Origin: Rhodovulum imhoffii | GTDB lineage: Bacteria; Pseudomonadota; Alphaproteobacteria; Rhodobacterales; Rhodobacteraceae | Assembly (NCBI RefSeq): GCF_003046545.1 | Contig: NZ_QAAA01000003.1 | Span: 1-64,000, forward strand | Direction: 5' to 3' | DNA length: 64,000 bases | The notes under the pieces: generated by a model | The model's input: the letters and a program-made list of their open reading frames with translations, nothing else | Databases searched by the model: none | Told to the model about the DNA's origin: nothing | Translations under genes and position numbers: made by a program | Shown here: positions 3,785 to 24,052 of the stretch, one piece after another | How the letters are laid out: every line of letters starts with the position of its first letter | Position numbering within the stretch: the stretch's first letter is position 1

Positions 3785-5059
3785 CTACGTATGAGGCCTT
3801 ATCAGGATCGCCCGGAAGTCGTTGACATTCGTGCCAGTAGGGCCTGGCACGAAAAGGTCTTCCAGTGCGTTGAATGCACTCCAGGCGTCATGACCGGACA
3901 GTGCGGTCACCGGATCGATGCCGGCGGCCCGCATGCGCTCTGCGCTCTGTCCGTCTGCAAAAGCCCCGGCATTGTCTTCCGATCCATCAATTCCATCCGT
4001 GTCCGCGGCCATTGCAGATATAGCTTCAGTACCGTCGATGGCCGTGGCAAACGCCAACAGGAATTCACTGTTTCGCCCGCCCTTTCCGCTTTTGTCCCGG
4101 ATCGTCACCGTCGTTTCGCCGCCGGAAAGCAAGACTGCGGGCGCAGAAAACGGACGGTTCCGGGTTGCCACCTCACGTGCCAGTGCGGCGTGAACCAAGC
4201 CAACATCACGCGCCTCACCTTCAATTGCATCCGACAGGATCACGGCAGGCACGCCCTTCCGGTTTGCTTCGCGTTGCGCCGCCTCTAGCGACAGCCGTGC
4301 CGAAGCTATCACCCGTGTTTGCGTGCGTGCAAACACGGCATCGTTTGGAGTAGGGGCACGGGCCGCCTCCTGCGCCAAATGAGCCATGATCCTGCCCGGC
4401 AACGAAATCCGATGGTTCTCGATCAGCTTGAGAGTGTCTTCAAGACTTGTTGACGAGGGCACGGTAGGTCCCGATGCGACTTCAGCGGGATCGTCCCCCG
4501 GCACGTCCGACACCACCAGCGATACGACACGCGCTGGAAAAGCCGCAACAGCCAGCCGCCCACCCTTTATCCGGCTGACATGTTTGCGGATTGCATTCAT
4601 CACGCCGATTGGAGCACCGGAGCGCAAGAGCGCGGAATTGAGCACCCGTTCGTCTTCCAGGGTTAGCCCCTCGGGGGGCGCAGGAAGTAAAGAAGACCCT
4701 CCACCACAAACCAGCGCGACGACCAGATCGTCTTCGGTCAGGTTCGAAACCGCCTCAAACAACGCGGCACTGGCTTTCAGACCCGCCCTGTCCGGCACCG
4801 GGTGCGCCGCTTCCAGAACGTGGATTTTCCTGCAGGGCACCGCGTAGCCATATCGTGTGACGACACTTCCGTCGACAGGATCGCCCCAGAGGTTTTCGAA
4901 TGCGGCAGCCAGTTGTGCCGCGCCTTTCCCCGCACCGACCACGATCGTCCGCCCCCTGGGCCGTTCGGGCAGATGCGCGCGCAAAGCCCTGATCGGGTCG
5001 GCCGCAGCTACGGCGGCATCAAAAAGCGAGATAAGAAAAGATTTGTCTTCGGGCGTCAT
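3785..5059 (-). CDS. D-glycerate 2-kinase (GckA/TtuD, MOFRL family)
   Basis: A protein of 424 residues from ATG 5059 (a GTG one codon upstream is equally possible). It has the family marks VVGAGKGAAQLA near the N-terminus, LVCGGGSSLLPAPPEGLTLE, NAIRKHVSRIKGGRLA, and a C-terminal MOFRL-like domain with LLSGGETTVTI and GGRNSEFLLAFA. The family phosphorylates D-glycerate to 2-phosphoglycerate with ATP; some members are annotated as hydroxypyruvate reductase by homology to TtuD. It is the last gene of a four-gene minus-strand operon and starts on the stop codon of the Dabb gene, so it is probably translationally coupled. Its position suggests that the island pathway releases glycerate. Confidence 0.88.
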   Translation of the reverse strand: MTPEDKSFLISLFDAAVAAADPIRALRAHLPERPRGRTIVVGAGKGAAQLAAAFENLWGDPVDGSVVTRYGYAVPCRKIHVLEAAHPVPDRAGLKASAALFEAVSNLTEDDLVVALVCGGGSSLLPAPPEGLTLEDERVLNSALLRSGAPIGVMNAIRKHVSRIKGGRLAVAAFPARVVSLVVSDVPGDDPAEVASGPTVPSSTSLEDTLKLIENHRISLPGRIMAHLAQEAARAPTPNDAVFARTQTRVIASARLSLEAAQREANRKGVPAVILSDAIEGEARDVGLVHAALAREVATRNRPFSAPAVLLSGGETTVTIRDKSGKGGRNSEFLLAFATAIDGTEAISAMAADTDGIDGSEDNAGAFADGQSAERMRAAGIDPVTALSGHDAWSAFNALEDLFVPGPTGTNVNDFRAILIRPHT

Positions 5060-5370
5060 CACAACTCTATATCGCAGACAAAAATGCCGTCAGCGCCACC
5101 TTCGAGGCAGGCGACGATATCGGCACCGATGGTCTGATGTTCCTCATTCGCCAGATAGGCATCGCGCGCGTCGGCGTCGCGGAAATCGAACCAGAACATG
5201 TCAAGGAAATTGCGGACCAAGGGTGTTTCAACGGATATATTGGCATGATGGTGAAAACCTCCGATGCCGTCGATCCGTGGCGTGAGGCCCTCAAGCCGTT
5301 CATAAAGGGCGTTTTTTTGGCTGACATCAATATCCTTGCGGAACCGTAGATGAACGAGGTGCCGGATCAT
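5059..5370 (-). CDS. Dabb (stress-responsive alpha/beta barrel) domain protein
   Basis: A small single-domain protein of 103 residues starting MIRHLVHLRFRKD, with FDFRDADARDAYLANEEHQ and a C-terminal beta strand, the pattern of Dabb ferredoxin-like dimers. The start at 5370 fits the family, which begins with the first beta strand; the frame is open further upstream but that part is inside the enoyl-CoA hydratase gene. It overlaps the hydratase 3' end by 44 bp and its stop overlaps the kinase start. Members of this fold include small enzymes and subunits acting on reactive intermediates. Its role here is unknown, but the tight coupling implies a part in the same pathway. Confidence 0.75.
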   Translation of the reverse strand: MIRHLVHLRFRKDIDVSQKNALYERLEGLTPRIDGIGGFHHHANISVETPLVRNFLDMFWFDFRDADARDAYLANEEHQTIGADIVACLEGGADGIFVCDIEL

Positions 5371-6157
5371 TGATCTTCTCCATTTTCGTGAAATCGGCCG
5401 GGCGCTTTTCTTTGAACGCTGCAACACCTTCGCGCAGATCGGCGCTGGCCGCCGCTATTCGTCCTGCCAGGGATTCCAAAACGCGCTCACGCTCTTCACC
5501 TTCGGCAGCGTTGAGCAGCATTTTGGTGAGCTCCGTGGCAAGGGGGCTACGCCTGAGAACGGCGGCCGCCGTTTCCCTGGCGGCGCCAAGCGCCTCACCT
5601 TGACCCACAACCTTGTCCACCAGGCCTTCGGCAAGGGCGTTTTCGGCGGACAGGACTTCGCCAAACAATGCCATGCGCCGCACGATCTGCTGACCGAAAC
5701 GGCGCACGGCACGCTGCGTTCCGGACCAGCCTGCGATAATACCCAGCCCTGTTTCCGGCTGACCGAATTTCACCTGCCCTTCGGCAATGCGGTAGTCGGC
5801 ACAGGCCGCAAGCTCCAGCCCGCCACCAAGTGCATGGCCATTGATCGCGGCAATTACCGGCTGCCGAAGCCGGGCCAGACGATCAAGGCTGTCATGGCCA
5901 TTGCGCACCCAATGGCGCGCGAAAGCGGTGGGCGCCTGATCGCTCCACGCCGCGATATCACCCCCCGCGCAAAAGGAATTGCCTGTGCCCGTCAGAATCA
6001 GAGCGCCGATGTCATCGCAGCGTTCGATTTCACGGCACAGATCCGCGAGTTGGTCCATCATGTCCGCGTCAAGCGCGTTGCGCTTGCTTTCCCGTTCGAT
6101 CCGCAAAACGCCGATGCGGTCCTGAACAGTCAGGGAAAAATCTCTGCTCCGTGTCAT
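5327..6157 (-). CDS. Enoyl-CoA hydratase/isomerase (crotonase family)
   Basis: A crotonase of 276 residues. The CoA-binding/oxyanion segment is SFCAGGDIAAW. Both catalytic glutamates of true hydratases are in place: Glu115 in GHALGGGLELA and Glu135 in GQPETGLG, so hydratase chemistry is plausible, not only isomerase or hydrolase activity. The start overlaps the stop of the CoA-transferase gene as ATGA, showing coupling. With the CoA-transferase upstream and the acyl-CoA dehydrogenase at 20.1 kb, it probably hydrates an unsaturated acyl-CoA made from the imported substrate. The real acyl chain is unknown. Confidence 0.88.
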   Translation of the reverse strand: MTRSRDFSLTVQDRIGVLRIERESKRNALDADMMDQLADLCREIERCDDIGALILTGTGNSFCAGGDIAAWSDQAPTAFARHWVRNGHDSLDRLARLRQPVIAAINGHALGGGLELAACADYRIAEGQVKFGQPETGLGIIAGWSGTQRAVRRFGQQIVRRMALFGEVLSAENALAEGLVDKVVGQGEALGAARETAAAVLRRSPLATELTKMLLNAAEGEERERVLESLAGRIAAASADLREGVAAFKEKRPADFTKMEKINDPAPRSSTVPQGY

Positions 6158-7734
6158 GGCTTTGCCAGCTTGAGCTGCATGGCTCCTGATGCAAACAAAC
6201 GTGCATCCATGGTCTTCAGACTGTCAGATACTTTCAACCCGGTTGCCGCCTGATCCAGCACATCCTTTTGCAGATCCAGCCCCGGCGCAATCTCTGTCAC
6301 GACGAGTTCTCCGTCCAGCAAGCGGATCACACAGCGTTCGGTCACATAGGTGACATCCTGCCCCAGTTCCCGTGCCCGGATACCCGAGAACGACACCTGA
6401 TCCACATCCTCTACAAACTTCGCAACCTTGCCTTCGGTGTCAATGACAAGACGGCCATCTTCAATCCGCATCTTTGCACCTGCATTGAAGTTGCCGGAGA
6501 AAATGATCTTTCGCGCCCGTGCTGTGATGTCCACGAACCCCCCGGCGCCGGCCGTTCGATGCGGCACACCACGCAGCCGCGAAACGTTGACCGAGCCATC
6601 CCGGCCGACTTCCAGGAAAGACAAAAGCGATGCGTCGAAGCCGCCAGCCTGAAAATACGTGAACTGATGGGGAGACGCGACATAGGCTTCAGCGTTGGCG
6701 GCGCACCCAAACTTGAAATCCAGCAACGGCACACCCCCAACTGCACCCTGTTCGATCATCCAGGTCACCGCGCCGTGCAGACCCTCTTCGACAAGAATGC
6801 GCGGCACGTTAGCAGAGATACCAAACCCGATGTTGACCGCCCAGCCGTCCCGCAATTCCTGCGCCACCCGGCGCGCAATGACCTTACCAACATTGAATTC
6901 GGCATTCCTGAAGCTGTGCAACGGGCGGATCAATTCGCCGGAAATGGCGGGGTCGTATTGCGTAGCGGTTGTCTGGAGTTGCTCGGGCGCCTCCACGACA
7001 AAATCAACGAGAATCCCCGGAACACGAACATCATGCGGGCGGATCGATCCGTTTTGCGCCACGCGTTTGACTTGCGCGATCACGAAACCGCCAGAATTTC
7101 GTGCGGCCAAAGCCATTTCCATAGCACCCAGGTATGCGCCTTCGTGCTCAAAACTCAGGTTGCCGCGTTCATCCGCTGTTGTGGCGCGGATAATGGCGAC
7201 ATCGGGTCGAATTGCGGGAAAGAACAGCCAGTCTTCTCCTTCGAAGTCGCGATGAGACACGAGGGGGTCGTCGCGTGCGGCGTCATTCATGGCGCAGGCT
7301 TCAAGGTCCGGGTCGACGAAGGTCTTCAAGCCGACTTTTGTCAGAACGCCCGGCCGCTTTGCCGCCCCTTCGCGCAGGATATCGAAGACGATTCCCGACG
7401 GAACGTTGTAGGCTTTCACCTGATCTGCAGCAATCATCTGCCAGATTTTCGGAGGCTTGGCCTTTGTCGGACCCGACGGATAGGACCCACCGATGATCTT
7501 CGTCAGCAACCCGGGCTTGGCGATGTGGTCGACACCTGGCGTGCCGAACATGTCGCCCGCAGCAATTGGGTGAATTGATGTCAGGTTTCGCGGGGCCCCT
7601 TCAGAGTCAAAGCGCGCACCCAAGGCCGCCAGGACTGCGTCCGGGCAACACAAGCCACTGGACGAATTAACAGCGATGATGCAATCGTCCTTGATGTGGC
7701 GAACAGCCTCCTCTGCGGTTGCGATCTTGGACAT
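6154..7734 (-). CDS. Family I acyl-CoA:carboxylate CoA-transferase
   Basis: A fused alpha/beta CoA-transferase of 526 residues, the size of propionate- or acetoacetate-type single-chain enzymes. The N-terminal half has the GG-rich CoA-binding region (IIGGSYPSGPT, DERGNLSFEHEGA). The C-terminal half holds the catalytic glutamate, Glu328, in MIEQGAVGG, followed by the glycine-rich GVPHRTAGAGGFVDI. It is the first gene of the operon running to the glycerate kinase and faces away from an aldo-keto reductase across a 123-bp divergent promoter with a palindromic operator (7751-7764). Its likely job is to load CoA on an organic acid formed by the island dehydrogenases. The donor and acceptor are unknown. 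Confidence 0.85.
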   Translation of the reverse strand: MSKIATAEEAVRHIKDDCIIAVNSSSGLCCPDAVLAALGARFDSEGAPRNLTSIHPIAAGDMFGTPGVDHIAKPGLLTKIIGGSYPSGPTKAKPPKIWQMIAADQVKAYNVPSGIVFDILREGAAKRPGVLTKVGLKTFVDPDLEACAMNDAARDDPLVSHRDFEGEDWLFFPAIRPDVAIIRATTADERGNLSFEHEGAYLGAMEMALAARNSGGFVIAQVKRVAQNGSIRPHDVRVPGILVDFVVEAPEQLQTTATQYDPAISGELIRPLHSFRNAEFNVGKVIARRVAQELRDGWAVNIGFGISANVPRILVEEGLHGAVTWMIEQGAVGGVPLLDFKFGCAANAEAYVASPHQFTYFQAGGFDASLLSFLEVGRDGSVNVSRLRGVPHRTAGAGGFVDITARARKIIFSGNFNAGAKMRIEDGRLVIDTEGKVAKFVEDVDQVSFSGIRARELGQDVTYVTERCVIRLLDGELVVTEIAPGLDLQKDVLDQAATGLKVSDSLKTMDARLFASGAMQLKLAKP

Positions 7735-7750
7735 CTTCAGCTGCCTCTTG

Positions 7751-7764
7751 TAACTAACTGGTTA
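7751..7764. promoter_or_regulatory. Putative TetR operator, CoA-transferase/AKR divergent promoter
   Basis: TAACTAACTGGTTA lies 17 bp from the CoA-transferase start and 94 bp from the aldo-keto reductase start. It has the half-sites of the sites at 20020-20033 and 20106-20119 (TAACC-N4-GGTTA form). It is followed by the AT-rich run TTTTTAATAT, which could be part of a promoter. Binding is inferred from recurrence only. Confidence 0.55.
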
Positions 7765-7857
7765 TTTTTAATATGCGGCCGGGTTCCGTGTCAATCAAGA
7801 CCCGTATTTCCGCTAAATGTCCGCGAAGGCTTCGGCATATCACAGGGAGAGCACTCG

Positions 7858-8676
7858 ATGACGATATATTTCGAAAAGACCTACCAGCGCAGTTTCGGAA
7901 CCTTTCCTCTGAAAGGCCAGGAACTACACGACGCCGTCCAGGCCGCCGCCGAGCTTGGCTATCGCGCTTTCGACACCGCTCAGATGTATGAAAACGAAGC
8001 CGAGACGGGCGCAGCCATCAAGGCGACAGGACTGCCCCGAGACGATCTGTGCATAACGACCAAGGTGGATATTGCCAATTTCAGCCCGGACAAATTTCTT
8101 CCCTCCGTGGAAGAGAGCCTTCGCAAGCTTCAGATTGATCGGGTTGATGTGCTTCTGCTGCACTGGCCGACACCAGGCGGCAATATCGGGCCATCCCTGG
8201 AACAATTGCAAAAAGCACATGATCAAGGGCTGACAAGACATATCGGTATTTCCAACTATACGGCGCAAATGATGCGTGATGCCAAGTCCATTGTGGATGT
8301 GCCGATTGTGACGAACCAGGTCGAATTCCATCCTCTGCTCAATCAAGACAAGCTGCTGGCAGTGGCGACGGAAACCGGTATTCCGCTGGCATCCTATTGT
8401 TCCGTCGCACGGGGCGAAGTGTTCAGGCACGCGATTTTTAGCGAAATCGGCGCCGCCTATGGCAAGAGTGCCGCACAGGTTGTCTTACGCTGGATTCTCC
8501 AGAAAGGCGTCAGCATCAACACGATGTCCACCAAGCCTGCAAACATTCGGGCCAATTTCGATGTGATGGATTTCACGCTATCCTCGGTCGATATGGCCCG
8601 AATCGAAGAGATGACAAAGACAGGATATCGCATCGTTGGGAAAGACCTTGTGCCCTACGCACCGGATTTCGACTAA
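7858..8676 (+). CDS. Aldo-keto reductase (2,5-diketogluconate reductase-like)
   Basis: A protein of 272 residues; ATG 7858 follows CAGGGAGAGCACTCG. The catalytic tetrad of aldo-keto reductases is complete: Asp39 and Tyr44 in FDTAQMYENE, Lys69 in ITTKVD, and His102 in LLHWP. The cofactor region near the C-terminus is short and the protein lacks the usual KS-x-R phosphate-binding motif (STKPANIRANF instead), so NADPH preference is not certain. It is a single-gene unit, divergent from the CoA-transferase operon and closed by a strong hairpin. It probably reduces or oxidises a sugar-derived carbonyl in the island pathway. Confidence 0.85.
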   Translation: MTIYFEKTYQRSFGTFPLKGQELHDAVQAAAELGYRAFDTAQMYENEAETGAAIKATGLPRDDLCITTKVDIANFSPDKFLPSVEESLRKLQIDRVDVLLLHWPTPGGNIGPSLEQLQKAHDQGLTRHIGISNYTAQMMRDAKSIVDVPIVTNQVEFHPLLNQDKLLAVATETGIPLASYCSVARGEVFRHAIFSEIGAAYGKSAAQVVLRWILQKGVSINTMSTKPANIRANFDVMDFTLSSVDMARIEEMTKTGYRIVGKDLVPYAPDFD

Positions 8677-8683
8677 CAAAGAA

Positions 8684-8728: not shown

Positions 8729-10333
8729 TCAACGATTCTCTCGCACCAGGTCAGCGGCCTTTTCGCCGATCATGATGGTGGGGGCGTTGGTGTTCGAACC
8801 TACAAGGCTGGGCATGACCGAACTGTCGCAGATCCGCAGGCCATCGATTCCGCGCACCCGGAGTCGGGAATCCACCACCGCCATAGGGTCGTTGTCTGCG
8901 CCCATTTTGCAGGTGCATGTCGGGTGATAGGATGTGCGCCCGTATTGACGGGCATAGGCCTCGTAATCGGCTTGCGTCTTCACATTTTCATCGGGGAAGC
9001 GGATCTTGTGAACATGCTTCTTCAGCGCCGATTGTTCAAAGATCTCGCGACTTATCCTGACGCCCTCGACCGAGGTTTTCAGGTCATCGGGGTGGCCCAG
9101 GAAATTCGGGTCGACGATTGGCAGCGCCGCGGGGTCAGCGGAACGTAACCTGACCGTCCCCCGAGCTTTCGGGCGGAGAGTATAGCTGTTTAATGTGATC
9201 CCCGAAGACCCCGGCGGTACGCTTGGTACACCAGCCTCCGCCCCGGCTCCCGCAAGAAAGTGAAATTGAAGGTCGGGTATCGGGCGCGCCGGATCGGCAT
9301 ACCAGAACGCCCCCCCTTCGACGACATTTGATGTCACTGGCCCGCTGCCGAAGAGGTAATACTGAGCGCCCGCCCAAACCATCCAATGCAGCTTGTTGTA
9401 TTTGTCGAGGCTTTGTTGGCCGGTCAGTTCCGCGACGATATCGATGCCAAAATGATCGTTCAGGTTCTCACCTACGCCTGGCAAGTCCTGCAAGACATCA
9501 ACCCCATGATTGCGCAGATGCGCTGAAGGCCCCAACCCGGACAGCATCATCAACTTGGGAGTTCCTATCGCACCTGAGGTTATCAGCACTTCTGAACCGG
9601 CACGGGCGGTTTGATGCCCGGATTTGTCCGAATACTCCACACCAATGGCACGGCCCTTTTCAATCGCGACACGATGCACCAGACAGTTTGTCCTGACCGT
9701 CAGATTTGCGCGCGTCATCGCCGGGCGCAGATATCCAACCGCTGCAGAACAGCGTTTCCCGTTTTTCGTGGTGGTTTGGTAAACTCCCGCGCCCTCCTGA
9801 ACGGCACCGTTGAAGTCCGGGTTGTAGGGTATCCCGCGTTGCTGGCAGGCCTGTACGAATGCGCATGTCATGCGCTGCGGTTCCGGCACGTTCGATACAC
9901 CGAGTTCCCCATCGGTTCCGTGCCAGTCGCCGGCCAGAAAGGTGTTGCCCTCGGAGCGCAGGAAATACTTTCGGATTTCAGCGAAAGACCAGCCTTCACA
10001 TCCCTCGTTCCGAGCCCAACGGTCATAGTCGGCCGGGTTGCCACGCGTAAAAACCTCGGCGTTAATCGAAGAACCGCCGCCGATGACCCGGGCTTGAGCA
10101 TAGGGGATTTCTCTGTTGTTCGCGTGTTTCTGCGGCGCAGTCACCAGCCCCCAGGTGTGCGGGCCGGTCGTCATCTTTGCAAAGCCTACGGGCATGTGGA
10201 TCAGGGGATGCCAATCCTTGCCCCCCGCTTCCAACAGAAGCACGCGACAGGTGCTGTCCTCGGTCAGTCGGTTAGCCAGAACACAACCCGAAGATCCACC
10301 TCCGACAATAATGAAATCGTATCCCTCGGCCAT
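8729..10333 (-). CDS. GMC-family FAD-dependent alcohol dehydrogenase (choline dehydrogenase-like)
   Basis: A protein of 534 residues; ATG 10333 follows AAAGGGGGC. The N-terminal ADP-binding motif is IIVGGGSSGCVLANRL. GMC signature 1 appears around ARVIGGGSSINAEVFTRG. The C-terminal active-site histidine is in TSYHPTCTCKMG, with the paired Asn in GSNTNAPTIM. The family oxidises primary alcohols or polyols to aldehydes using FAD. It is the last gene of a seven-gene minus-strand operon that starts with the sugar-binding protein and lies 10 bp after an aldehyde dehydrogenase, which would complete the oxidation to an acid. Choline is an unlikely substrate because no bet regulator or transporter is present. 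Confidence 0.88.
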   Translation of the reverse strand: MAEGYDFIIVGGGSSGCVLANRLTEDSTCRVLLLEAGGKDWHPLIHMPVGFAKMTTGPHTWGLVTAPQKHANNREIPYAQARVIGGGSSINAEVFTRGNPADYDRWARNEGCEGWSFAEIRKYFLRSEGNTFLAGDWHGTDGELGVSNVPEPQRMTCAFVQACQQRGIPYNPDFNGAVQEGAGVYQTTTKNGKRCSAAVGYLRPAMTRANLTVRTNCLVHRVAIEKGRAIGVEYSDKSGHQTARAGSEVLITSGAIGTPKLMMLSGLGPSAHLRNHGVDVLQDLPGVGENLNDHFGIDIVAELTGQQSLDKYNKLHWMVWAGAQYYLFGSGPVTSNVVEGGAFWYADPARPIPDLQFHFLAGAGAEAGVPSVPPGSSGITLNSYTLRPKARGTVRLRSADPAALPIVDPNFLGHPDDLKTSVEGVRISREIFEQSALKKHVHKIRFPDENVKTQADYEAYARQYGRTSYHPTCTCKMGADNDPMAVVDSRLRVRGIDGLRICDSSVMPSLVGSNTNAPTIMIGEKAADLVRENR

Positions 10334-10343
10334 GATGCCCCCT

Positions 10344-15408: not shown

Positions 15409-16407
15409 CTATTTCACAAAGCTGATGGATTTGCGGTCGGTCGACAGGATGACGGCGAGGATCACCAGAATGCCCAGCACCCCATCCTGCACGTATCCGG
15501 GCAGTCCGATCACCACCATTCCGTTGCCAATGACAAAGACGATCAGCACGCCCACCAAGGTGTTCCAGACCCCGCCGACCCCCCCCCACAAGGCCGTCCC
15601 GCCAACAACCACCGCGGTGATGGACAGGAACATAAAGTTGTTGCCGGTTGCGGTCTCCGCGATCCCGATGCGCCCCACGGCAAGCAATGCGCCCACGGCG
15701 AAGAAAACGCCGGCAACCGTAAAGCCCAGGACGCGGACACGGTTCACGTTCAGACCCGACGCGATGGCCAGGTCCTCGCCGCCTCCGACCGCATAGAAAT
15801 TGCGGCCCAGCGTGGTGCGCGTCTGAATGAACCAGGCAACCAACAGGAAAACCCCAGCGACATAGACCATCAAAGGGAATCCGAGAATTCGTTCGGTGAG
15901 AAGGGATCGGAACAACGCGTCTTCGATGCGAATTCGATCACCGCCTGTCATCACCATGGCCAGACCCGTGCCGACAAAGCCCATCGCCAGCGAGGCCATG
16001 AAAGACGGAATCCTGAGCTTGACGTGGATCAGCCCGTTGACGAAGCCAAGTACCGCTCCGACCAGCATTGCAAACGGCAAAGCAAGCCATGCCCAGCTGG
16101 CCAAGGTGCCACCCAGCCAAAGAAAACAGAACGCGAAGGCGACGGCGCAGACAGACACAGTGCCTTCCATAGACAGGTCGATCGACCCCATTATGATGAC
16201 GAAGGTTACGCCGATGGCCACCATGAGTGCGGGCGAGGCGGCGATAAGGATGCGTGCAAAATTCCGTGTCGACAGAAACCGTGGCTCCATCACGGCGAAA
16301 AAGGCGCAGAGCACGATTAGAACCAGAAGCGGGGCCCATTTCACCAGCGTTTCGCGCCTGATGCTGAACCCGGTGCCTGCTTTGTCGGCTGTCAGTGTCT
16401 TGGCCAA
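15409..16407 (-). CDS. ABC sugar importer permease (RbsC-like), second
   Basis: A protein of 332 residues of the same family as the 12.9-kb permease but clearly different. It has VIIMGSIDLSMEGTVSV, the loop GLNVNRVRVLGFTVAG and a LWGGVGGVWNTLVG segment. I place the start at TTG 16407 because it is preceded by GGGAGGAAGCACC, an excellent ribosome site; ATG starts further upstream would run into the binding-protein gene and add a non-membrane, frame-shadow sequence. It lies 91 bp after the binding protein, separated by a strong hairpin. Confidence 0.88.
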   Translation of the reverse strand: MAKTLTADKAGTGFSIRRETLVKWAPLLVLIVLCAFFAVMEPRFLSTRNFARILIAASPALMVAIGVTFVIIMGSIDLSMEGTVSVCAVAFAFCFLWLGGTLASWAWLALPFAMLVGAVLGFVNGLIHVKLRIPSFMASLAMGFVGTGLAMVMTGGDRIRIEDALFRSLLTERILGFPLMVYVAGVFLLVAWFIQTRTTLGRNFYAVGGGEDLAIASGLNVNRVRVLGFTVAGVFFAVGALLAVGRIGIAETATGNNFMFLSITAVVVGGTALWGGVGGVWNTLVGVLIVFVIGNGMVVIGLPGYVQDGVLGILVILAVILSTDRKSISFVK

Positions 16408-16468
16408 GGTGCTTCCTCCCAAAAGCGCTTCAGCGCCACCTTCTCGGCGATGACTTGCGGAGTGGGCC

Positions 16469-17611: not shown

Positions 17612-17720
17612 TGGTTTCCTCCCTTATCGGCTTCAAGCTGGAACAGGACAATCAGGCCGCTACATTCGACGCCTTGGTCTCTGCGACCCGTGTCGCCAGG
17701 TCAAAAGGCACACAACGCAC

Positions 17721-17730
17721 TAACTAGTTA
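17721..17730. promoter_or_regulatory. Putative TetR operator, binding-protein/tetR divergent region
   Basis: TAACTAGTTA is a perfect 10-bp palindrome between the binding-protein gene (start 17611) and tetR (start 17866). It uses the same half-site as the 14-bp operators elsewhere in the island but with a spacing 4 bp shorter, so it may be a weaker or differently bound site. Its position fits autoregulation of the repressor and control of the importer. Confidence 0.45.
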
Positions 17731-17865
17731 CTTTCTTGCGGGTCCCTCCGTCAAGCCCTATGATAAAGTTGCGTCGCGCATAAAATGCTGCTTCGGAATT
17801 GGATTTTGGTTGTCCGGGCGGAAATGGGCATCACGCATAAGAAAGTGACAAGGCTCGGTGGAGGC

Positions 17866-18507
17866 ATGGCAGTGAAAACAACAAGGAAAATTCGCGATGC
17901 GGATGCGACGCAGGCGCGGATTCTGGCCGCAGCCAAGAAAGAATTCGCCAAAAATGGCCTGGGCGGAGCACGCGTGGATGAAATCGCTGACCGTGCGAAA
18001 GCCAACAAGCGGATGATCTACCACTACTTCGGCAACAAGGAAGATTTGTTTCGAATCGTTCTGGAAGAGGCCTATACTGATATTCGAACCGCCGAACAGG
18101 CACTGGAACTGGAGCATCTGCCTGCCCGCGATGCGCTTGAAAAGTTGATCCGGTTTACTTGGGAATATTACCTGAAGAACCCTGAATTCATCACATTGGT
18201 GAACAGCGAGAATCTCCACAAGGCGCGGCATTTGAAGAAGTCGGGCAAGATCGAGATACTGTTCAAGCGGTTCGTTGGTATGGTCGGCGCTCTTCTGGAC
18301 CGGGGTGTGGAGGAGGGCGTGTTCCGCCCTGGAATAGATCCCGTACAGCTGAATATCACGATCGCGGCCATCGGGTATTATTACCTCACCAACCGCTTCA
18401 CAGGATCGCTCGTATTCCAACGTGACTTGATGGCCCCCGAGGCTTTGGAGGAAAGGTTGGCCTTCAACATCGAAACCATCATGCGCATGGTCTGCGTAAA
18501 CCCCTGA
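17866..18507 (+). CDS. TetR-family transcriptional regulator
   Basis: A protein of 213 residues if started at ATG 17866; upstream ATGs at 17785 and 17824 are in frame and cannot be excluded. The N-terminal helix-turn-helix is typical: TQARILAAAKKEFAKNG, VDEIADRAKANKRMIYHYF, then GNKEDLF. The C-terminal part is a helical ligand domain of the TetR_C type. It is the only regulator in the island and sits divergent to the importer operon. It is probably a repressor of the island, released by the substrate or an acyl-CoA intermediate, acting on the TAACC/GGTTA palindromes. Confidence 0.88.
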   Translation: MAVKTTRKIRDADATQARILAAAKKEFAKNGLGGARVDEIADRAKANKRMIYHYFGNKEDLFRIVLEEAYTDIRTAEQALELEHLPARDALEKLIRFTWEYYLKNPEFITLVNSENLHKARHLKKSGKIEILFKRFVGMVGALLDRGVEEGVFRPGIDPVQLNITIAAIGYYYLTNRFTGSLVFQRDLMAPEALEERLAFNIETIMRMVCVNP

Positions 18508-18762: not shown

Positions 18763-19068
18763 ATGAAGAGCAAACTCGATTTACGAGTGGCCCTGAAAAA
18801 AGGGGCAGGTCACTATGAGGCCGTCGAGTTGCGGACGGACACTTTCAAGGACAAAGACGTCGAGTTTGGCCGGATTTATGCGATCCCAAAAGCGTTCGCG
18901 GCCCGTGCTGGCATCCTGCCCGAACAAAGCAATCGCTTCTACTTTGATGTGGCCAAGCCGTGGCGGCCTGGCCCCAGTGTGCGGGCGATCACGGTGTCGG
19001 AGCGTCTTCGCGCAGCAACCCTTTGGTTTTCAGGTCTGCCCAGAACTGATCAGGTATCGGGTGGCTGA
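18763..19068 (+). CDS. Small protein of unknown function, possibly truncated
   Basis: An open frame of 101 residues beginning MKSKLDLRVALKKGAGHYEA. I do not recognise it. The central part (TFKDKDVEFGRIYAIPKAFA, then NRFYFDVAKPWRPG) has protein-like composition. The last 27 residues, however, run antisense through the 3' end of the aldo-keto reductase gene, as if the original gene had been cut and the frame continued by chance. There is no clear ribosome site before ATG 18763. It may be a remnant brought in with the adjoining IS630 fragment. Confidence 0.3.
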   Translation: MKSKLDLRVALKKGAGHYEAVELRTDTFKDKDVEFGRIYAIPKAFAARAGILPEQSNRFYFDVAKPWRPGPSVRAITVSERLRAATLWFSGLPRTDQVSGG

Positions 19069-20002
19069 ACCACGCGATGTTTTGCTGCAACTGCTCAACC
19101 GTCCTTGTGCCGGCCATGAATGTCGGGACAGCCGGATGCGCCACCACGAATTGCAGCGCGGCGGCGGGCAGGGGAACGCCGTATTCCTTGCAGACCTCCT
19201 CGATTCTTTGGACTTTGGCCATGACGTCATCCGGGGCAGGGGCATAATTGTATTTTGCGCCCTCTTTCGCCCCCGTGGCGAGAATCCCCGAATTGAACCC
19301 GCCGCCCACGACCACGGCGGCGCCGCGGTCTTCACAAAGCGGCAGGAACTCATTCAGGGCGTCCTGTTCCAAAAGAGTGTAGCGCCCCGCAAGGAGGAAA
19401 CAGTCGAAATCGCGCTGCTGCAAGGCCGCGTGACATACTTCCCATTCATTCACCCCGACGCCGATGGCCCTGACCACTCCCTGGTCGCGCAGGTCAGAAA
19501 GAGCTTTCCATGACCCGTCCATGGCCTGTTTGAAAACCTCAGGCTGCTCATCGCCGCGTGTGAAAACGTCAATATCGTGGATGAAGCAGATATCCATCCG
19601 CTCAAGGTTCAGCCGCTGGAGACTGTCCTCGACGCTGCGCATCGTGCCGTCATAGCTGTAATCGAAATGCATTGTGAAGCGACCGGCATTGGTCCAGGGG
19701 GCATAATCGATATCTTTCTTGCGCGCAGACTTGAGAATGCGGCCCACCTTTGATGAAAGTACGAAATCGTCACGGTTTTTCCAACGCAGGGAATGGCCGG
19801 TGCGCAATTCGGACAGGCCATGTCCGTACATGGGCGCCGTATCGAAGTAGCGGACACCCTGTGCCCAGGCCTCCTGAAACATCGCGTCGGACGTTTCCTC
19901 GTCGATCTCGCGAAAAATGTTGCCGATGGGGGCCGTGCCGAAGCCGAAGGGGGTCACCTTCAGATCCGCGCGCCCGAATTTCACCTTGCTGTCCGGCTGC
20001 AT
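18989..20002 (-). CDS. Aldo-keto reductase (aldose/pyridoxal dehydrogenase-like)
   Basis: A protein of 337 residues; ATG 20002 follows GGGAGGAATGGC. The catalytic tetrad is present: Asp54 and Tyr59 in FDTAPMYGHG, Lys85 in LSSKVGR, and His142 in CFIHDID. The length, FGFGTAPIGN and VVVGGGFNSGIL place it with the D-threo-aldose/L-fucose/L-galactose dehydrogenases and pyridoxal 4-dehydrogenase, which oxidise aldoses to lactones with NAD. It is a single gene divergent from the acyl-CoA dehydrogenase operon, with two palindromic operators between them. It probably makes a lactone or acid from the imported sugar; the exact substrate is not known. Confidence 0.88.
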   Translation of the reverse strand: MQPDSKVKFGRADLKVTPFGFGTAPIGNIFREIDEETSDAMFQEAWAQGVRYFDTAPMYGHGLSELRTGHSLRWKNRDDFVLSSKVGRILKSARKKDIDYAPWTNAGRFTMHFDYSYDGTMRSVEDSLQRLNLERMDICFIHDIDVFTRGDEQPEVFKQAMDGSWKALSDLRDQGVVRAIGVGVNEWEVCHAALQQRDFDCFLLAGRYTLLEQDALNEFLPLCEDRGAAVVVGGGFNSGILATGAKEGAKYNYAPAPDDVMAKVQRIEEVCKEYGVPLPAAALQFVVAHPAVPTFMAGTRTVEQLQQNIAWFSHPIPDQFWADLKTKGLLREDAPTP

Positions 20003-20019
20003 GCCATTCCTCCCATAAG

Positions 20020-20033
20020 TAACCATATGGTTA
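20020..20033. promoter_or_regulatory. Putative TetR operator, perfect palindrome
   Basis: TAACCATATGGTTA is a perfect 14-bp palindrome 18 bp upstream of the aldo-keto reductase start. It is the best example of the motif repeated across the island. Confidence 0.6.
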
Positions 20034-20105
20034 AATGGCACATATTCCGCTTAATAAATCAACCCTTATGAAAGTCTTGACCGGGGCAACATCCGAGCCT
20101 AAAAG

Positions 20106-20119
20106 TAACCACTCAGTTA
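20106..20119. promoter_or_regulatory. Putative TetR operator before the acyl-CoA dehydrogenase
   Basis: TAACCACTCAGTTA is preceded by AAG, as is the site at 20020-20033. It ends 14 bp before the acyl-CoA dehydrogenase ATG, overlapping the likely transcription or translation initiation region, a typical repressor position. Confidence 0.6.
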
Positions 20120-20133
20120 CTGCGGGAGGCCAT

Positions 20134-21279
20134 ATGTTTCTGACTGAAACCCATCGCCAGGTGCGAGAAATGACACGGCAGTTCGCCGAAGATGTCATCC
20201 GCCCTGTTGCAGAAGAACTTGATCGCGAAGAACGGTTCCCGCGCGAGATATATGACCAGATGGGTGAACTGGGCCTGTTTGGTATCGGCGTCCCTGAAGA
20301 GATGGGGGGGGCAGGCTTCGACACGGTCGCTTATGTACTTGTCATGGAAGAGCTGTCACGCGGCTATGCCAGTGTCGCAGACCAGTGTGGCCTGGTTGAG
20401 CTGCTTTCGACCCTGTTGGTGAGGCATGGTACTGGCGCACAGCGTGACCAATGGCTTATGGCCCTTATGACGGCCAGGCTCCGGGGCGCCTACTGCATTA
20501 CCGAACCGGAGGCCGGCACGGACGTTTCCGGTATTAGAACCGTGGCCAAAAGGGATGGCGACGGTTGGGTGCTCAATGGCGATAAAATCTGGATTCACAA
20601 CGCACCTGTGGCAGATGTCGGGTTCGTTCTTGCCCGCACGGATCCAGAAGCAGGGCATCGCGGCATGTCGATATTTGTCGTTGACCTGCACGCAGATGGC
20701 GTGTCGCGCGGCCCCAAGGAACACAAGATGGGTCAGCGCGCCAGCCAAGTCGGCGCGCTCAATTTTGACGATGTGCGTCTGCCCGCAAAAGCTCTGTTGG
20801 GGCAGGAAGGGCGCGGCTTTCACATGATGATGAGTGTCCTCGACAAGGGACGTGTAGGCATCGGCGCGCTGGCGGTGGGGATCGGGCAAGCCGGACTGGA
20901 AGCCGCTGTAGACTATGCCCGGCAGCGGAAGCAGTTCAAGAAACCGATCTCGGAATTTCAAGGCGTTCAATGGCTGTTGGCCGATATTGCCAAAGACGTA
21001 GCGGCTGCACGTCTTCTTGTTTTGAACGCGGCGCAGAAAATCGACACCGGCGCCGACGCCACGAAATACTGCTCCATGGCAAAATGTTTTGCAGGGGATA
21101 TGGCCGTCGCACGTACCGCGGACGCTGTGCAGGTTTTTGGCGGATCCGGTTATATCCGGGGGTTCGAAGTCGAACGACTTTATCGCGATGCGAAAATTAC
21201 CCAGATCTATGAGGGCACAAACCAGATTCAGCGCATGATCATCGCACGTGAATTGCTGGCGAAAGGCGCAACAGCATGA
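20134..21279 (+). CDS. Acyl-CoA dehydrogenase
   Basis: A protein of 381 residues; ATG 20134 follows GGGAGGCCAT, and the longer upstream frame would cross the operator. Family marks are YCITEPEAGTDVSGIRT (FAD/substrate region), HKMGQRASQ, LLGQEGRGFHMMM, and the catalytic-base segment QIYEGTNQIQRM near the C-terminus with Glu in its usual place. It introduces a double bond alpha-beta to the CoA thioester and passes electrons to ETF, for which no gene is present in the window. It is the first gene of a four-gene plus-strand operon and the partner of the enoyl-CoA hydratase 14 kb away in the same regulon. Confidence 0.92.
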   Translation: MFLTETHRQVREMTRQFAEDVIRPVAEELDREERFPREIYDQMGELGLFGIGVPEEMGGAGFDTVAYVLVMEELSRGYASVADQCGLVELLSTLLVRHGTGAQRDQWLMALMTARLRGAYCITEPEAGTDVSGIRTVAKRDGDGWVLNGDKIWIHNAPVADVGFVLARTDPEAGHRGMSIFVVDLHADGVSRGPKEHKMGQRASQVGALNFDDVRLPAKALLGQEGRGFHMMMSVLDKGRVGIGALAVGIGQAGLEAAVDYARQRKQFKKPISEFQGVQWLLADIAKDVAAARLLVLNAAQKIDTGADATKYCSMAKCFAGDMAVARTADAVQVFGGSGYIRGFEVERLYRDAKITQIYEGTNQIQRMIIARELLAKGATA

Positions 21280-22046
21280 GCGGGCAGGTGGCGCTGATCA
21301 CTGGATCGAGCCGGGGTATTGGGTTGGCCGCCGCAGTGGCTTTGGCGCGCGAAGGCTTCGCCATCGCCGTCAATGGGCCTGCGGACGATGCCGAATTGAA
21401 AGCGGCGGTGGGAACTGTACAGCGTGCAGGTGTCCGCGCGGTTGCAGCACCTTTTGACGTAACGGACCTTTCTGCTCATGATCATAAGCTTGGAGAGATA
21501 GAAGACGCCTTGGGGCCCTTGACGACACTGGTCAATAACGCGGGTGTCGGCGTGATGCAGAGAGGGGACCCCCTAAAAGTTTCCGAAGACAGTTATGATC
21601 GCTGTCTCGCGGTGAATACAAAGGCAATGTTCTTTCTGACCCAGGCCTTTGCCCGCAGGCTTTTGGCGCGCGATCGCGATGTGTCGCTGTTTCATAGCAT
21701 TGTCAACGTAACATCATCCAACGCGGTTGCCGTGGCCGAACCACGTTCCGAATACTGTGTGTCAAAGGCCGCCGCTGCCATGGTTTCCAAAGCCTGGGCC
21801 GTGCGGCTGGGCCGCGAAAATATTGCCGTTTATGATGTGCAGCCGGGTCTGATTGCCACCGGAATGACGGCACCCGTGATTGCGCAGTACGAGGAGCGTG
21901 CCAAAGCGGGACTCACCTTGATGCCACGTGTCGGGCAACCCGAAGATATGGGCGGTATCATTGCCTCCCTTGCCTCCGGAAAACTCCCATACACAACCGG
22001 ACAGGCGATTTCGGCGGATGCCGGGATGCTTGTCCCGCGCTTCTGA
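21276..22046 (+). CDS. Short-chain dehydrogenase/reductase
   Basis: A classical SDR of 256 residues. The cofactor motif is TGSSRGIG (residues 9-16), NNAG is at LVNNAGVGV, the catalytic Ser is in NVTSSNAV, and Tyr/Lys are in EYCVSKAAA. There is no basic residue after the first strand that clearly marks NADPH use. It overlaps the acyl-CoA dehydrogenase stop as ATGA. It may oxidise the hydroxyl formed by the enoyl-CoA hydratase, or a sugar hydroxyl earlier in the path; a choice between these cannot be made from sequence. Confidence 0.88.
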   Translation: MSGQVALITGSSRGIGLAAAVALAREGFAIAVNGPADDAELKAAVGTVQRAGVRAVAAPFDVTDLSAHDHKLGEIEDALGPLTTLVNNAGVGVMQRGDPLKVSEDSYDRCLAVNTKAMFFLTQAFARRLLARDRDVSLFHSIVNVTSSNAVAVAEPRSEYCVSKAAAAMVSKAWAVRLGRENIAVYDVQPGLIATGMTAPVIAQYEERAKAGLTLMPRVGQPEDMGGIIASLASGKLPYTTGQAISADAGMLVPRF

Positions 22047-22058
22047 AGGACGTTTGCC

Positions 22059-23210
22059 ATGAAAATTTCTTTGCCCGATGACACCGGCAAACTGACCGAC
22101 TACACGCTTGTCGGGCAGCCACTGCCCGAGGCGCGGCTGCCAGCAAACCCCGCCCGTATCGTATATTCTGCCGCGCATGTGGTGGCCGATCCATTCACTG
22201 CCAACGATCCGTCCGGCCCAGCAACCGTGGATTGGGACGCGACGATGCGTTTTCGCCATCACCTTCACGGATTGGGCCTTGGGATTGCCGAAGCCATGGA
22301 CACTGCTCAACGTGGCATGGGTCTGGATTGGGGTGGCGCGCTGGAGCTCATCCGTCGGACGCGGTCCGAACTGCCCGATGCCCTGGTCGCCAATGGGTGT
22401 GGGACCGATCATCTGGATACGCCGAAGGCGCGCAGCCTTGATGATGTCAAACGCGCCTACATGGAACAGCTTGAGGTCATTCAGGCGCTGGATGCGCGGG
22501 TCATCCTGATGGCCAGTCGGGCCATGGCCCATGTCGCGTCGCGGCCTGATGACTACATCGCACTTTACGGTGAGTTGCTGACCGCCTGCGACCATCCCGC
22601 GATCCTTCATTGGCTGGGCGACATGTTCGATCCGGCCTTGGCGGGGTATTGGGGCGGCAATAACTTCGAAAGCGCGTTGGAAACAGTCGTCGCGATCATC
22701 GACGCCAATGCCGACAAGGTCGATGGCATCAAGATCTCCCTGCTCGACAAGGACAAGGAAGTCATTTTGCGCCGCCGCCTGCCTGACGGCGTGCGCATGT
22801 ATACCGGAGATGATTTCAATTACCCTGAACTGATTGAGGGGGACGATCAGGGTTTTTCCCACGCGCTTCTGGGGATTTTCGATCCACTGGCGCCAGCCGC
22901 CGCGCATGCTGTGACCCAGCTTGGGCAGGGGGATGCCGTTGGGTTCCGCGCCACGCTCGATCCGACGGTGCCCCTGGCGCGGCTGATTTTCCGGGCTCCG
23001 ACACAATATTACAAGACAGGTGTGGTCTTTCTGGCGTGGCTGAACGGTTTCCAGGACCACTTCGTCATGTTGAACGGGGCGCAGGCGATGCGCCCGCTGC
23101 CGTATTTCACCGAAGTGTTCCGCCTCGCCGATGGGTGTGGACTGCTGCGCGATCCTGAACTTGCAATCACGCGGATGAAACGGTTGCTGGCCATGTATTG
23201 CGCCACCTGA
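22059..23210 (+). CDS. DUF993 TIM-barrel protein, putative DHDPS-like lyase/aldolase
   Basis: A protein of 383 residues which I recognise as DUF993. It reads like a TIM barrel of the DHDPS/N-acetylneuraminate lyase group. A lysine, Lys225 in VDGIKISLLD, sits in the same local pattern as the Schiff-base lysine of DHDPS (GIK-E-type), and a glycine-rich region precedes it. It has no membrane segment or signal. It follows the SDR by 12 bp with AAGGA before the start, and its stop overlaps the next start. By analogy it may cleave a keto acid or condense pyruvate-like units; no activity is known to me for this family, so this is a guess based on fold. Confidence 0.75.
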   Translation: MKISLPDDTGKLTDYTLVGQPLPEARLPANPARIVYSAAHVVADPFTANDPSGPATVDWDATMRFRHHLHGLGLGIAEAMDTAQRGMGLDWGGALELIRRTRSELPDALVANGCGTDHLDTPKARSLDDVKRAYMEQLEVIQALDARVILMASRAMAHVASRPDDYIALYGELLTACDHPAILHWLGDMFDPALAGYWGGNNFESALETVVAIIDANADKVDGIKISLLDKDKEVILRRRLPDGVRMYTGDDFNYPELIEGDDQGFSHALLGIFDPLAPAAAHAVTQLGQGDAVGFRATLDPTVPLARLIFRAPTQYYKTGVVFLAWLNGFQDHFVMLNGAQAMRPLPYFTEVFRLADGCGLLRDPELAITRMKRLLAMYCAT

Positions 23211-24052
23211 TGCGAGATTTTTCACAGGATCATTCGCCACTTGCTTTGAACACAGCGACGTTGGGACACAACATCGATGGGTATGGGGCAGGCTGGTCGC
23301 CGGAACAGGTGATCGACGCCTGTGCCGCGCGTGGCTATGGCGGTATTGTGTTTTGGTGTCGGGAGATCGGGACGCGCGCTTTCGAAATTGGCGAGCGGGT
23401 GCGTGCCGCCGGCCTGCATGTTGCGGGCCTTTGCCGTACGCCATACCTTATCGGCCGTGAGGCCGGCAGCGACGATGAGATCAAGGCCTCCATCGATATG
23501 GCTTCCGCGCTCGGCGCACCGGTTCTGACGATCGTGACCGGTGGGACAGAGCCGGGCACTTTGGGTTTGGAGGAAAGCCGAAAGCGGTTGACGGACCGTG
23601 TCGCACGCCATGCGGAACATGCAGCACAAAACAAGGTGAAACTGGCCCTGGAGCCGCTCAACCCGATGTTCGGCGGAAACCGGACATGCCTGTTCACGGT
23701 GCGGGACGCATTGGGGATATGCTCCGAAGTAAACGTGCCGAATCTCGGAATAGCTGTCGATGTCTACCACGTCTGGTGGGACCGGACCTTGCCCGAAACT
23801 CTGAAGGATGCGACAGGCCGTTTATTCGGCTATCACCTCTGTGATTGGCTGGAAAACACGTCTCATATGTTGCTCGACCGTGGAATGATGGGCGATGGCG
23901 TGGCCGACTTGAAAGCAATCCGTCGCGCCGTTGAAGGTGCCGGATATGACGGCTTATGCGAGGTCGAAATCTTTTCGGCAGACACCTGGTGGAAGCGTTC
24001 TCCCGATCAGGTCCTCGACATAATCGTGGAGCGTTTTCAGACAGTTTGCTGA
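23210..24052 (+). CDS. Xylose isomerase-like TIM-barrel (sugar phosphate isomerase/epimerase family)
   Basis: A protein of 280 residues from ATG 23210, which overlaps the DUF993 stop as TGATG; a TTG 12 bases earlier is possible. It has the AP endonuclease 2/xylose isomerase pattern: metal-ligand glutamates in LALEPLNP and GLCEVEIFS, and histidines in VDVYHVWWD and FGYHLCDW. Family members isomerise or epimerise keto sugars and dehydrate inosose. It is the last gene of the plus-strand operon, ending about 40 bp before insertion-sequence debris. A role as 3-keto or 2-keto sugar isomerase in the island pathway is likely. Confidence 0.82.
   Translation: MRDFSQDHSPLALNTATLGHNIDGYGAGWSPEQVIDACAARGYGGIVFWCREIGTRAFEIGERVRAAGLHVAGLCRTPYLIGREAGSDDEIKASIDMASALGAPVLTIVTGGTEPGTLGLEESRKRLTDRVARHAEHAAQNKVKLALEPLNPMFGGNRTCLFTVRDALGICSEVNVPNLGIAVDVYHVWWDRTLPETLKDATGRLFGYHLCDWLENTSHMLLDRGMMGDGVADLKAIRRAVEGAGYDGLCEVEIFSADTWWKRSPDQVLDIIVERFQTVC

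What the first reader, a model, noticed from the sequence alone, without database searches (positions are those of the whole stretch)
3785..24052. A 20-kb self-contained catabolic island with no pathway I can name
Import, oxidation, CoA activation, beta-oxidation-like chemistry, a DHDPS-like DUF993 protein, a sugar-isomerase-like barrel and glycerate 2-kinase occur together under one TetR regulator. Sugar importers rarely sit with a CoA-transferase, acyl-CoA dehydrogenase and enoyl-CoA hydratase. A plausible route is uptake by the ABC importer; oxidation by AKR, Zn-ADH, GMC and ALDH to an acid; CoA loading; desaturation and hydration; SDR oxidation; DUF993 cleavage; and glycerate kinase recovery. 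The substrate could be a methyl-branched or methylated sugar or polyol that ordinary sugar pathways cannot cut. The enzyme families are established; the order of steps is inference.
Basis: partly seen in the sequence, partly recalled or inferred. Interest (0 to 1): 0.9.

Follow-up and report, generated by a model that had tools for sequence, protein, structure and literature searches.

The report
Conserved sugar-to-CoA catabolic regulon, substrate unknown
Bacteria from very different groups carry much the same set of about eighteen genes that seem to import a sugar-like compound, oxidise it, handle it or its pieces on coenzyme A and split it with an enzyme nobody has characterised, so the set looks like an undescribed route for eating a natural compound whose identity is still unknown.

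Summary
The gene set is real and not a chance neighbourhood. It recurs in two conserved blocks in Sagittula, Paracoccus and S. meliloti pSymA; in the window one block is inverted relative to these. Most of the set recurs in another order in Janthinobacterium. In one genome from each of 198 genera, all 22 with a close CoA-transferase copy also carry DUF993. A palindrome, GTAAC-N6-GTTAC, lies in two of the window's three divergent promoters and in most relatives. The genome holds one other exact copy, before an operon on another contig whose relatives lie in or beside the cluster elsewhere. So this looks like one regulon, wider than the 20-kb island. DUF993 has the DHDPS fold and an invariant lysine that alignments put opposite the DHDPS Schiff-base lysine (weak scores), so it is probably the carbon-carbon lyase. 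No substrate was found in papers. Closest precedent: deoxyribonate oxidation (PMC6365646). New variant of a known kind.

The parts
3785..5062 (-). glycerate 2-kinase (DUF4147 + MOFRL)
   Evidence: Pfam PF13660/PF05161
5062..5370 (-).
   Evidence: tblastn, 75% identity to the Sagittula Dabb protein of the same cluster
5327..6157 (-). enoyl-CoA hydratase/isomerase family (ECH)
   Evidence: PF00378; both crotonase glutamates conserved in 58 of 58 aligned cluster homologs
6154..7734 (-). YdiF-type CoA-transferase (CoAT)
   Evidence: PF01144; nearest solved structure YdiF 2ahu
7750..7765 (.). operator-like palindrome GTAAC-N6-GTTAC (1 mismatch) between AKR1 and CoAT
7858..8676 (+). aldo/keto reductase 1 (DkgB-like)
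   Evidence: PF00248; NF008377 below its cut-off; start set by comparison with relatives
8729..10333 (-). GMC oxidoreductase (choline-dehydrogenase-like)
   Evidence: PF00732/PF05199
10344..11846 (-). aldehyde dehydrogenase (betaine-aldehyde-dehydrogenase-like)
   Evidence: PF00171
11916..12944 (-). Zn-dependent medium-chain alcohol dehydrogenase
   Evidence: PF08240/PF00107
12941..13882 (-). CUT2 sugar ABC permease 2
   Evidence: PF02653
13893..15398 (-). CUT2 sugar ABC ATPase (double)
   Evidence: PF00005, two stretches
15409..16422 (-). CUT2 sugar ABC permease 1 (start approximate)
   Evidence: PF02653
16499..17611 (-). CUT2 substrate-binding protein
   Evidence: PF13407; nearest solved structure 2rjo, E 9e-81
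17716..17731 (.). degenerate operator-like site in the SBP/TetR intergenic region
   Evidence: by eye; not recovered by the 2-mismatch scan of the window
17866..18507 (+). TetR-family regulator (TetR_C_29)
   Evidence: PF00440/PF17938; start set by comparison with relatives
18989..20002 (-). aldo/keto reductase 2 (L-galactose-dehydrogenase-like)
   Evidence: PF00248; five of six solved relatives are named L-galactose dehydrogenase; start set by comparison
20019..20034 (.). operator-like palindrome (1 mismatch) between AKR2 and ACAD
20105..20120 (.). operator-like palindrome, exact, GTAACCACTCAGTTAC
   Evidence: one of two exact copies in the 2.9-Mb genome
20134..21279 (+). acyl-CoA dehydrogenase (ACAD)
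   Evidence: PF00441/PF02770/PF02771; catalytic YEGT motif in 52 of 53 homologs at 45% identity or more; start set by comparison
21276..22046 (+). SDR dehydrogenase (PRK12745 family)
   Evidence: NF009386, 341 bits against a cut-off of 250
22059..23210 (+). DUF993 protein, DHDPS-fold putative Schiff-base lyase, lysine 225
23210..24052 (+). xylose-isomerase-like TIM barrel (AP_endonuc_2)
   Evidence: PF01261; nearest solved structures 3ju2 and 3qc0

Best explanation
A horizontally mobile catabolic regulon for a sugar- or polyol-type substrate. One operator sequence, probably bound by the TetR protein, controls the island and an operon on another contig. Steps: (1) a CUT2 importer, and a CUT1 importer in the second operon, bring the compound in. 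(2) GMC, ALDH, Zn-ADH and AKR2 oxidise alcohol and aldehyde groups to a polyhydroxy acid. (3) A dehydrogenase (SDR here, Gfo/Idh or perhaps an AroE-like protein in other clusters) makes a ketone. (4) DUF993 forms a Schiff base through K225 and cleaves a carbon-carbon bond. (5) The xylose-isomerase-like barrel and a reductase turn a three-carbon piece into glycerate, which glycerate 2-kinase sends to 2-phosphoglycerate. (6) CoA-transferase, ACAD with ETF, and ECH process an acid by beta-oxidation-type chemistry; I think it slightly more likely that they act on the other fragment after cleavage than on the intact acid before it. Shown: the gene set, its conservation, the shared operator sequence and the fold. 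Inferred: that TetR binds the operator, every reaction, their order, and the substrate class.
For: Two conserved gene blocks in six plasmids and most of the set reordered in Janthinobacterium. Co-occurrence over 198 genera. Operator in 33 of 34 AKR1/CoAT and 22 of 27 AKR2/ACAD intergenic regions, shuffles 0-20%; in eight relatives 12 of 16 exact sites with pyrimidine/purine flanks lie in the cluster. The only other exact operator in the window's genome precedes a GMC-VOC-CUT1-ADH operon whose relatives lie in or beside the cluster of R. anhuiense, Rhizobium NLR16a, RCAM05350 and Labrys. DUF993 fold and lysine. Catalytic residues of ECH and ACAD intact. ETF genes inside many clusters. GMC and/or ALDH in 43 of 46 loci with a sugar-type and no carboxylate-type importer, and at those cut-offs in 0 of 16 with carboxylate-type importers only. 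Glycerate kinase in two CoA-less clusters.
Against: No reaction, inducer or ligand is known. The operator was first seen in the window and then counted in relatives, some of which are the same contig reached twice. It is missing at two mismatches from 7 of 10 SBP/TetR regions, and at one mismatch the reversed-pattern control has more hits in the genome than the pattern, 43 against 10. TetR binding is not shown. The importer/GMC trend has exceptions: P. yeei L029 is scored TRAP without GMC, but its annotation shows CUT2, GMC and ALDH nearby; G179 has TRAP-like genes (by eye) with GMC and ALDH. SDR-type clusters keep CoAT in 39 of 48 slices, which also fits CoA loading before cleavage. The lysine match rests on strand order and sequence alignments with weak scores (hhalign E 0.05; the segment was chosen so that the lysines could align), not on superposed coordinates.
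Confidence: 0.55

Rival explanations
1. CoA first. The acid is activated by CoAT (perhaps with glyceryl-CoA as donor), desaturated by ACAD, hydrated by ECH and oxidised by SDR to a 3-keto acyl-CoA, which DUF993 cleaves in place of a thiolase or beta-keto-acid cleavage enzyme. Glycerate is then freed by the CoA-transferase.
For: Same logic as the proposed K. michiganensis deoxyribonate pathway, with CoA intermediates, a FabG-like dehydrogenase, a CoA-transferase assigned to glyceryl-CoA, and glycerate kinase (PMC6365646, passages). No thiolase or BKACE hit among the window genes scanned. CoAT, ACAD and ECH are all found in 24 of 48 SDR-type slices.
Against: DUF993 with the same invariant residues also serves clusters without CoAT, two of which still have glycerate kinase. 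In 10 SDR-type slices CoAT and ACAD occur without an ECH at the cut-off (slices are cut at about 10 kb). Lyases of the DHDPS fold are not known to me to act on thioesters (recalled).
Confidence: 0.3
2. Two neighbouring pathways under one regulator: a sugar branch (importer, DUF993, barrel, kinase) and a separate short-chain fatty-acid-type branch (CoAT, ACAD, ECH) for a second compound that occurs with the first, for example its aglycone or ester group.
For: The CoA genes are separable from the core across clusters.
Against: In the 198-genome sample close CoAT and ACAD homologs are found only in genomes with DUF993: 22 of 22 and 16 of 16. SDR, DUF993 and barrel lie in one tight run with ACAD.
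Confidence: 0.12
3. An ordinary collection of paralogous sugar and fatty-acid genes assembled by chance on a mobile element.
For: Every family but DUF993 is common (recalled), and the cluster often lies on plasmids.
Against: Synteny, co-occurrence and shared operator.
Confidence: 0.03

Closest known systems
Oxidative deoxyribonate catabolism (Price et al. 2019, PMC6365646; abstract and passages read)
   Same: Sugar acid oxidised by an SDR, cleavage product recovered through glycerate kinase; CoA-transferase and acyl-CoA intermediates in the Klebsiella version.
   Different: [quoted passage not shown] here no such gene but DUF993. P. simiae glycerate kinase is GarK-like, here MOFRL type. No ACAD, ECH, GMC, barrel or CUT2 importer in the passages read.
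Non-phosphorylative Entner-Doudoroff pathway (recalled)
   Same: DHDPS-fold aldolase, aldehyde dehydrogenase and MOFRL glycerate 2-kinase.
   Different: No enolase- or IlvD-family dehydratase hit in the window cluster; DUF993 does not match PF00701; extra CoA genes.
S. meliloti SMc04130 and SMc04132 (structures 3ju2 and 4dnh)
   Different: The titles give no function. SMc04132, SMc04133 and SMc04135 were found only in one regulon table (PMC12542648, one passage read). That they form a CoA-less cluster is inferred from the tags.
3-keto-glycoside beta-elimination operons (AtOGE, PMC10628242; abstract and passages read)
   Same: Oxidoreductases beside sugar-phosphate-isomerase-like barrels for glycoside breakdown.
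   Different: The passages read describe no DUF993, CoA-transferase, ACAD or glycerate kinase.

Membership tests
Oxidative deoxyribonate pathway | beta-keto-acid cleavage enzyme or thiolase in the cluster | tested here: not met
   No such Pfam or NCBIfam hit among the window genes scanned
Oxidative deoxyribonate pathway | SDR dehydrogenase, CoA-transferase and glycerate kinase together | tested here: met
   the kinase is of the MOFRL family, not GarK type
Oxidative deoxyribonate pathway | growth on deoxyribonate depends on the cluster | not testable with these tools
   needs mutants
DHDPS/NAL lyase superfamily (for DUF993) | DHDPS-like TIM barrel | tested here: met
   [not shown]
DHDPS/NAL lyase superfamily (for DUF993) | Schiff-base lysine on strand 6 | tested here: inconclusive
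   K225 invariant, on strand 221-227; an unanchored profile alignment with 30 DHDPS-family rows puts it opposite the DHDPS lysine, but at E 0.05; an anchored segment scored 19 against at most 12 in 1000 shuffles; no superposition
DHDPS/NAL lyase superfamily (for DUF993) | Pfam PF00701 match | tested here: not met
   only PF06187 matched
Fatty-acid beta-oxidation | active-site residues of ACAD and ECH | tested here: met
   the motifs themselves are recalled
Fatty-acid beta-oxidation | thiolase in the cluster | tested here: not met
Non-phosphorylative Entner-Doudoroff | sugar-acid dehydratase (enolase or IlvD family) in the cluster | tested here: not met
   no such Pfam hit in the window cluster
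TetR-controlled regulon | shared operator in the divergent promoters | tested here: met
   33 of 34 and 22 of 27 regions of two promoters; SBP/TetR only 3 of 10
TetR-controlled regulon | TetR binds the operator | not testable with these tools
   needs EMSA or DAP-seq

The most novel reading that the evidence does not exclude
An undescribed catabolic route, found in Alpha-, Beta- and Gammaproteobacteria and with a probable actinobacterial version (Rhodococcus), in which DUF993 is a new class of Schiff-base carbon-carbon lyase acting on a keto-sugar acid (or its CoA ester) made by interchangeable dehydrogenase families. It would join carbohydrate uptake to acyl-CoA chemistry and open a plant or microbial compound with no assigned bacterial pathway to many soil, marine, rhizosphere and fruit bacteria.
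Probability: 0.4. Interest if true: 0.8.

Novelty: new variant of a known kind. Interest (0 to 1): 0.62.

Why it matters
A domain of unknown function (DUF993; in 43 of 198 genera of the window's family and 35 of 385 genomes drawn from its class; no paper found by name) gets a testable role as a carbon-carbon lyase. S. meliloti 1021, a laboratory strain for which a pSymA-cured line exists (PMC4207669), carries matches to all 17 query genes in one run on pSymA (L027), so substrate and order of steps can be tested directly.

Tried and rejected
Literature (9 of 10 searches used). DUF993: 0 papers. SMa1400: 0. Six further SMa14xx tags, guessed from position and memory: 0. SMc0413x tags: one paper, a PhaR regulon table. 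Glycoside-elimination terms: one paper. Cluster keywords: 0 papers with 5 of 6 terms. 2RJO/5IAI/4DNH/3JU2: two sugar-alcohol papers for 5IAI (one read in passages; one listing only) and two false hits. The S. meliloti plasmid-curing paper gives 73 carbon sources for the wild type and 69 without pSymA, but the table as held does not mark which are lost (PMC4207669, passages and section 8). The S. meliloti transportome FRET paper showed no match in the passages read (PMC3454389). PMC6180224 and PMC8844928: term search only, no hits. Other papers: listings only.

Substrate guesses. 2-C-methylerythritol: does not fit ACAD. Quinate or shikimate: AroE-like proteins occur in Caballeronia L166 and Burkholderia L177 and by tblastn in L148 and L210, but GMC and sugar importers elsewhere do not fit. 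Deoxyribose: no cleavage enzyme of the known kind. Ribitol-like polyol for the CUT1 importer: nearest solved binding protein is 5iai, which holds ribitol; weak. The ligand of 2rjo is, as I recall, galactose; not checked.

Methods that failed. A first motif script missed ECH glutamates because of a bad regular expression, replaced by an alignment. A free-end-gap alignment of DUF993 with DHDPS was meaningless; the fixed segment was chosen so that the lysines could align; unanchored hhalign was weak with 3 and with 30 DHDPS rows. Four exact operator sites in relatives lie outside the cluster: two in G029 with no cluster genes nearby and two adjacent ones in G002, of which the one short slice tested shows none.
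Full report
OBSERVATION. Pfam and NCBIfam confirm each family. I add a missed Dabb-family gene at 5062-5370 and corrected starts (see parts). The island lies between a glycosyltransferase-like gene (489-3251; weak NCBIfam hits only) and nested inverted repeats at 24147-24607 that look like an insertion-sequence relic.

IS IT A UNIT? Six plasmid loci (Sagittula MA-2 and P11, 'Roseateles' XES5, Paracoccus ferrooxidans, P. kondratievae, S. meliloti RCAM1115) and pSymA of S. meliloti 1021 share one arrangement, by annotation and tblastn: [TetR,] importer, ADH, ALDH, GMC, AKR1 (opposite strand), CoAT, ECH, kinase, AKR2 (opposite strand), ACAD, SDR, DUF993, barrel. Protein identities to the window are 76-94% for Sagittula. 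Both Sagittula clusters lack the kinase there and have Dabb and MaoC genes instead; in four of the plasmid loci ETF genes follow. Some slices are cut before TetR, and the RCAM1115 copy is interrupted by a transposase gene. The window has the same two blocks, but its TetR-to-kinase block (3785-18507) is inverted relative to the AKR2-to-barrel block (18989-24052). Other loci place or turn the blocks differently again (L136, L141, L149, L152). Janthinobacterium carries most of the set in another order, with no kinase or TetR in the slice read. Rearrangement with the set retained argues for selection of the set.

CO-OCCURRENCE. One genome from each of 198 genera of the window's family was searched. 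DUF993 is in 43. CoAT at 69% identity or more is in 22, and all 22 have DUF993 (hypergeometric 1.2e-17). In 17 of the 22 both lie on one contig within 16 kb; in the other 5 on different contigs. ACAD at 69% or more is in 16 (one frame-broken, one partial), all 16 with DUF993. CoAT at 57-62% is in 27, of which 15 have DUF993; CoAT at 39-44% shows no association (6 of 25). The identity bands were set at gaps in the distribution after seeing it.

REGULON. A palindrome GTAAC-N6-GTTAC stands in two of the window's three divergent promoters: 7750, 20019 and, exact, 20105. With up to two mismatches it is in 33 of 34 AKR1/CoAT, 22 of 27 AKR2/ACAD and 3 of 10 SBP/TetR intergenic regions, against 0-20% of base shuffles per region. 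The motif was found in the window first, and some loci are the same contig reached twice, so the counts are not independent. In eight relatives (35 Mb in all) 12 of 16 exact sites of GTAACYNNNNRGTTAC lie within 20 kb of DUF993; the reversed control pattern had 5 sites. At one mismatch, three of seven Acetobacter/Gluconobacter loci have one site before CoAT and one before ACAD, a fourth has two other sites and three have none; two Pseudomonas loci and a Variovorax locus each have two sites, in front of ACAD and of the binding-protein gene; L124, L125 and L199 have none. The window's genome has two exact copies: the one at ACAD and one on contig C24, 7 bases before an operon GMC2, VOC, CUT1 binding protein and permeases, ATPase-like segment, Zn-ADH. 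Relatives of this module lie in or beside the cluster in R. anhuiense, Rhizobium NLR16a, RCAM05350 and Labrys; VOC plus ADH relatives border the cluster in S. meliloti 1021 and sit inside it in Rhizobium BK399. At one mismatch, however, the genome has 10 sites against 43 for the reversed control, so single sites mean little. That TetR is the binder is an inference from its divergent position.

MODULES. With 21 plasmid loci this gives 101 loci, most cut at about 10 kb from DUF993. By dehydrogenase: Gfo/Idh class I, 26 loci, none with CoAT, 24 with the barrel (Bradyrhizobium, Microvirga, Streptomyces and others). SDR class II, the window's type, 48 loci, 39 with CoAT: 24 with CoAT, ACAD and ECH, 10 with CoAT and ACAD but no ECH, 4 with CoAT and ECH but no ACAD, 1 with CoAT alone; 9 slices without CoAT, at least some of them cut before it. 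Gfo/Idh class III, 18 loci, all with CoAT, 17 with ECH, none with the barrel (mostly Mesorhizobium and Rhizobium). AroE-like proteins are in L166 and L177 (HMM) and by tblastn in L148 and L210; 7 loci have none of these dehydrogenases at the cut-offs. A quick DUF993 tree of 90 sequences (11 near-duplicate or partial loci left out by hand, one by coverage) puts the classes in largely separate groups, with 10 minimal changes of the CoA label, some due to cut slices. It also mixes Rhodobacterales, Rhizobiaceae and acetic acid bacteria, as horizontal transfer would.

IMPORTERS. With my cut-offs, GMC and/or ALDH accompany 43 of 46 loci with a sugar-type importer and no carboxylate-type one, and 0 of 16 with carboxylate-type importers only; of three mixed loci one has both enzymes and two have neither. 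Seven of the 16 are Bradyrhizobium; P. yeei L029 is misread by the cut-offs, and G179 is an exception outside the table. I read the trend as: clusters that import the acid do not need the enzymes that make it.

ACTIVE SITES. Both hydratase glutamates of ECH are present in 58 of 58 aligned homologs, and the acyl-CoA dehydrogenase YEGT motif in 52 of 53. So the CoA enzymes look functional. The genome has four ETF-domain matches, in two pairs, elsewhere.

MECHANISM. Two orders fit. CoA first matches the proposed Klebsiella deoxyribonate pathway (PMC6365646), which shows that sugar-acid chemistry on CoA with glycerate kinase is not unprecedented. Cleavage first fits better with class I clusters, which lack CoAT yet keep the same DUF993, and with glycerate kinase in two CoA-less clusters, P. 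yeei and G094. I favour cleavage first by a small margin.

SUBSTRATE. Unknown. Hints: CUT2 binding protein nearest 2rjo, CUT1 binding protein nearest ribitol-bound 5iai, AKR2 nearest L-galactose dehydrogenases. A polyol or aldose is the best class-level guess.

NOVELTY. My searches found no paper naming the cluster, DUF993 or a substrate. The library holds only open-licence papers, so this is weak evidence of absence. I file it as a new variant of a known kind: an oxidative sugar-acid catabolic pathway with an uncharacterised cleavage enzyme.

Noticed in passing
window 24147-24607: Three nested inverted-repeat pairs (19, 55 and 80 nt arms, 78-95% complementary) directly after the island, probably remains of an insertion sequence.
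   Followed up: partly
window 24959-30469: A 1836-residue ORF with many near-identical repeats and an autotransporter-like C-terminus (by eye).
   Followed up: no
window 489-3251: 920-residue protein with only weak hits to surface polysaccharide biosynthesis models.
   Followed up: no
L022 22043-31448: Next to the cluster on the Sagittula P11 plasmid lies a degradative HMG-CoA reductase with TRAP transporter, SDRs and a 3-keto-5-aminohexanoate cleavage protein, perhaps mevalonate catabolism.
   Followed up: no
L026 5889-8161: In S. meliloti RCAM1115 the cluster is interrupted by an ISRm17-family transposase and a ParDE-type toxin-antitoxin pair between GMC and AKR1.
   Followed up: no
L133 (JAFKDC010000017.1): Contig labelled Enemella evansiae (an actinobacterium, as I recall) has the same length and matches as G002:C17 of the window's own family; the public label looks wrong.
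   Followed up: partly
L166 and L177: Caballeronia and Burkholderia DUF993 clusters contain shikimate-dehydrogenase-like proteins; L166 also has a TRAP-type binding protein and two CoA-transferase matches.
   Followed up: partly
L192, L190 and other class I loci: Class I clusters often carry a taurine-type ABC importer and a protein related to one annotated as enolase-superfamily but without a Pfam hit at 1e-5.
   Followed up: partly
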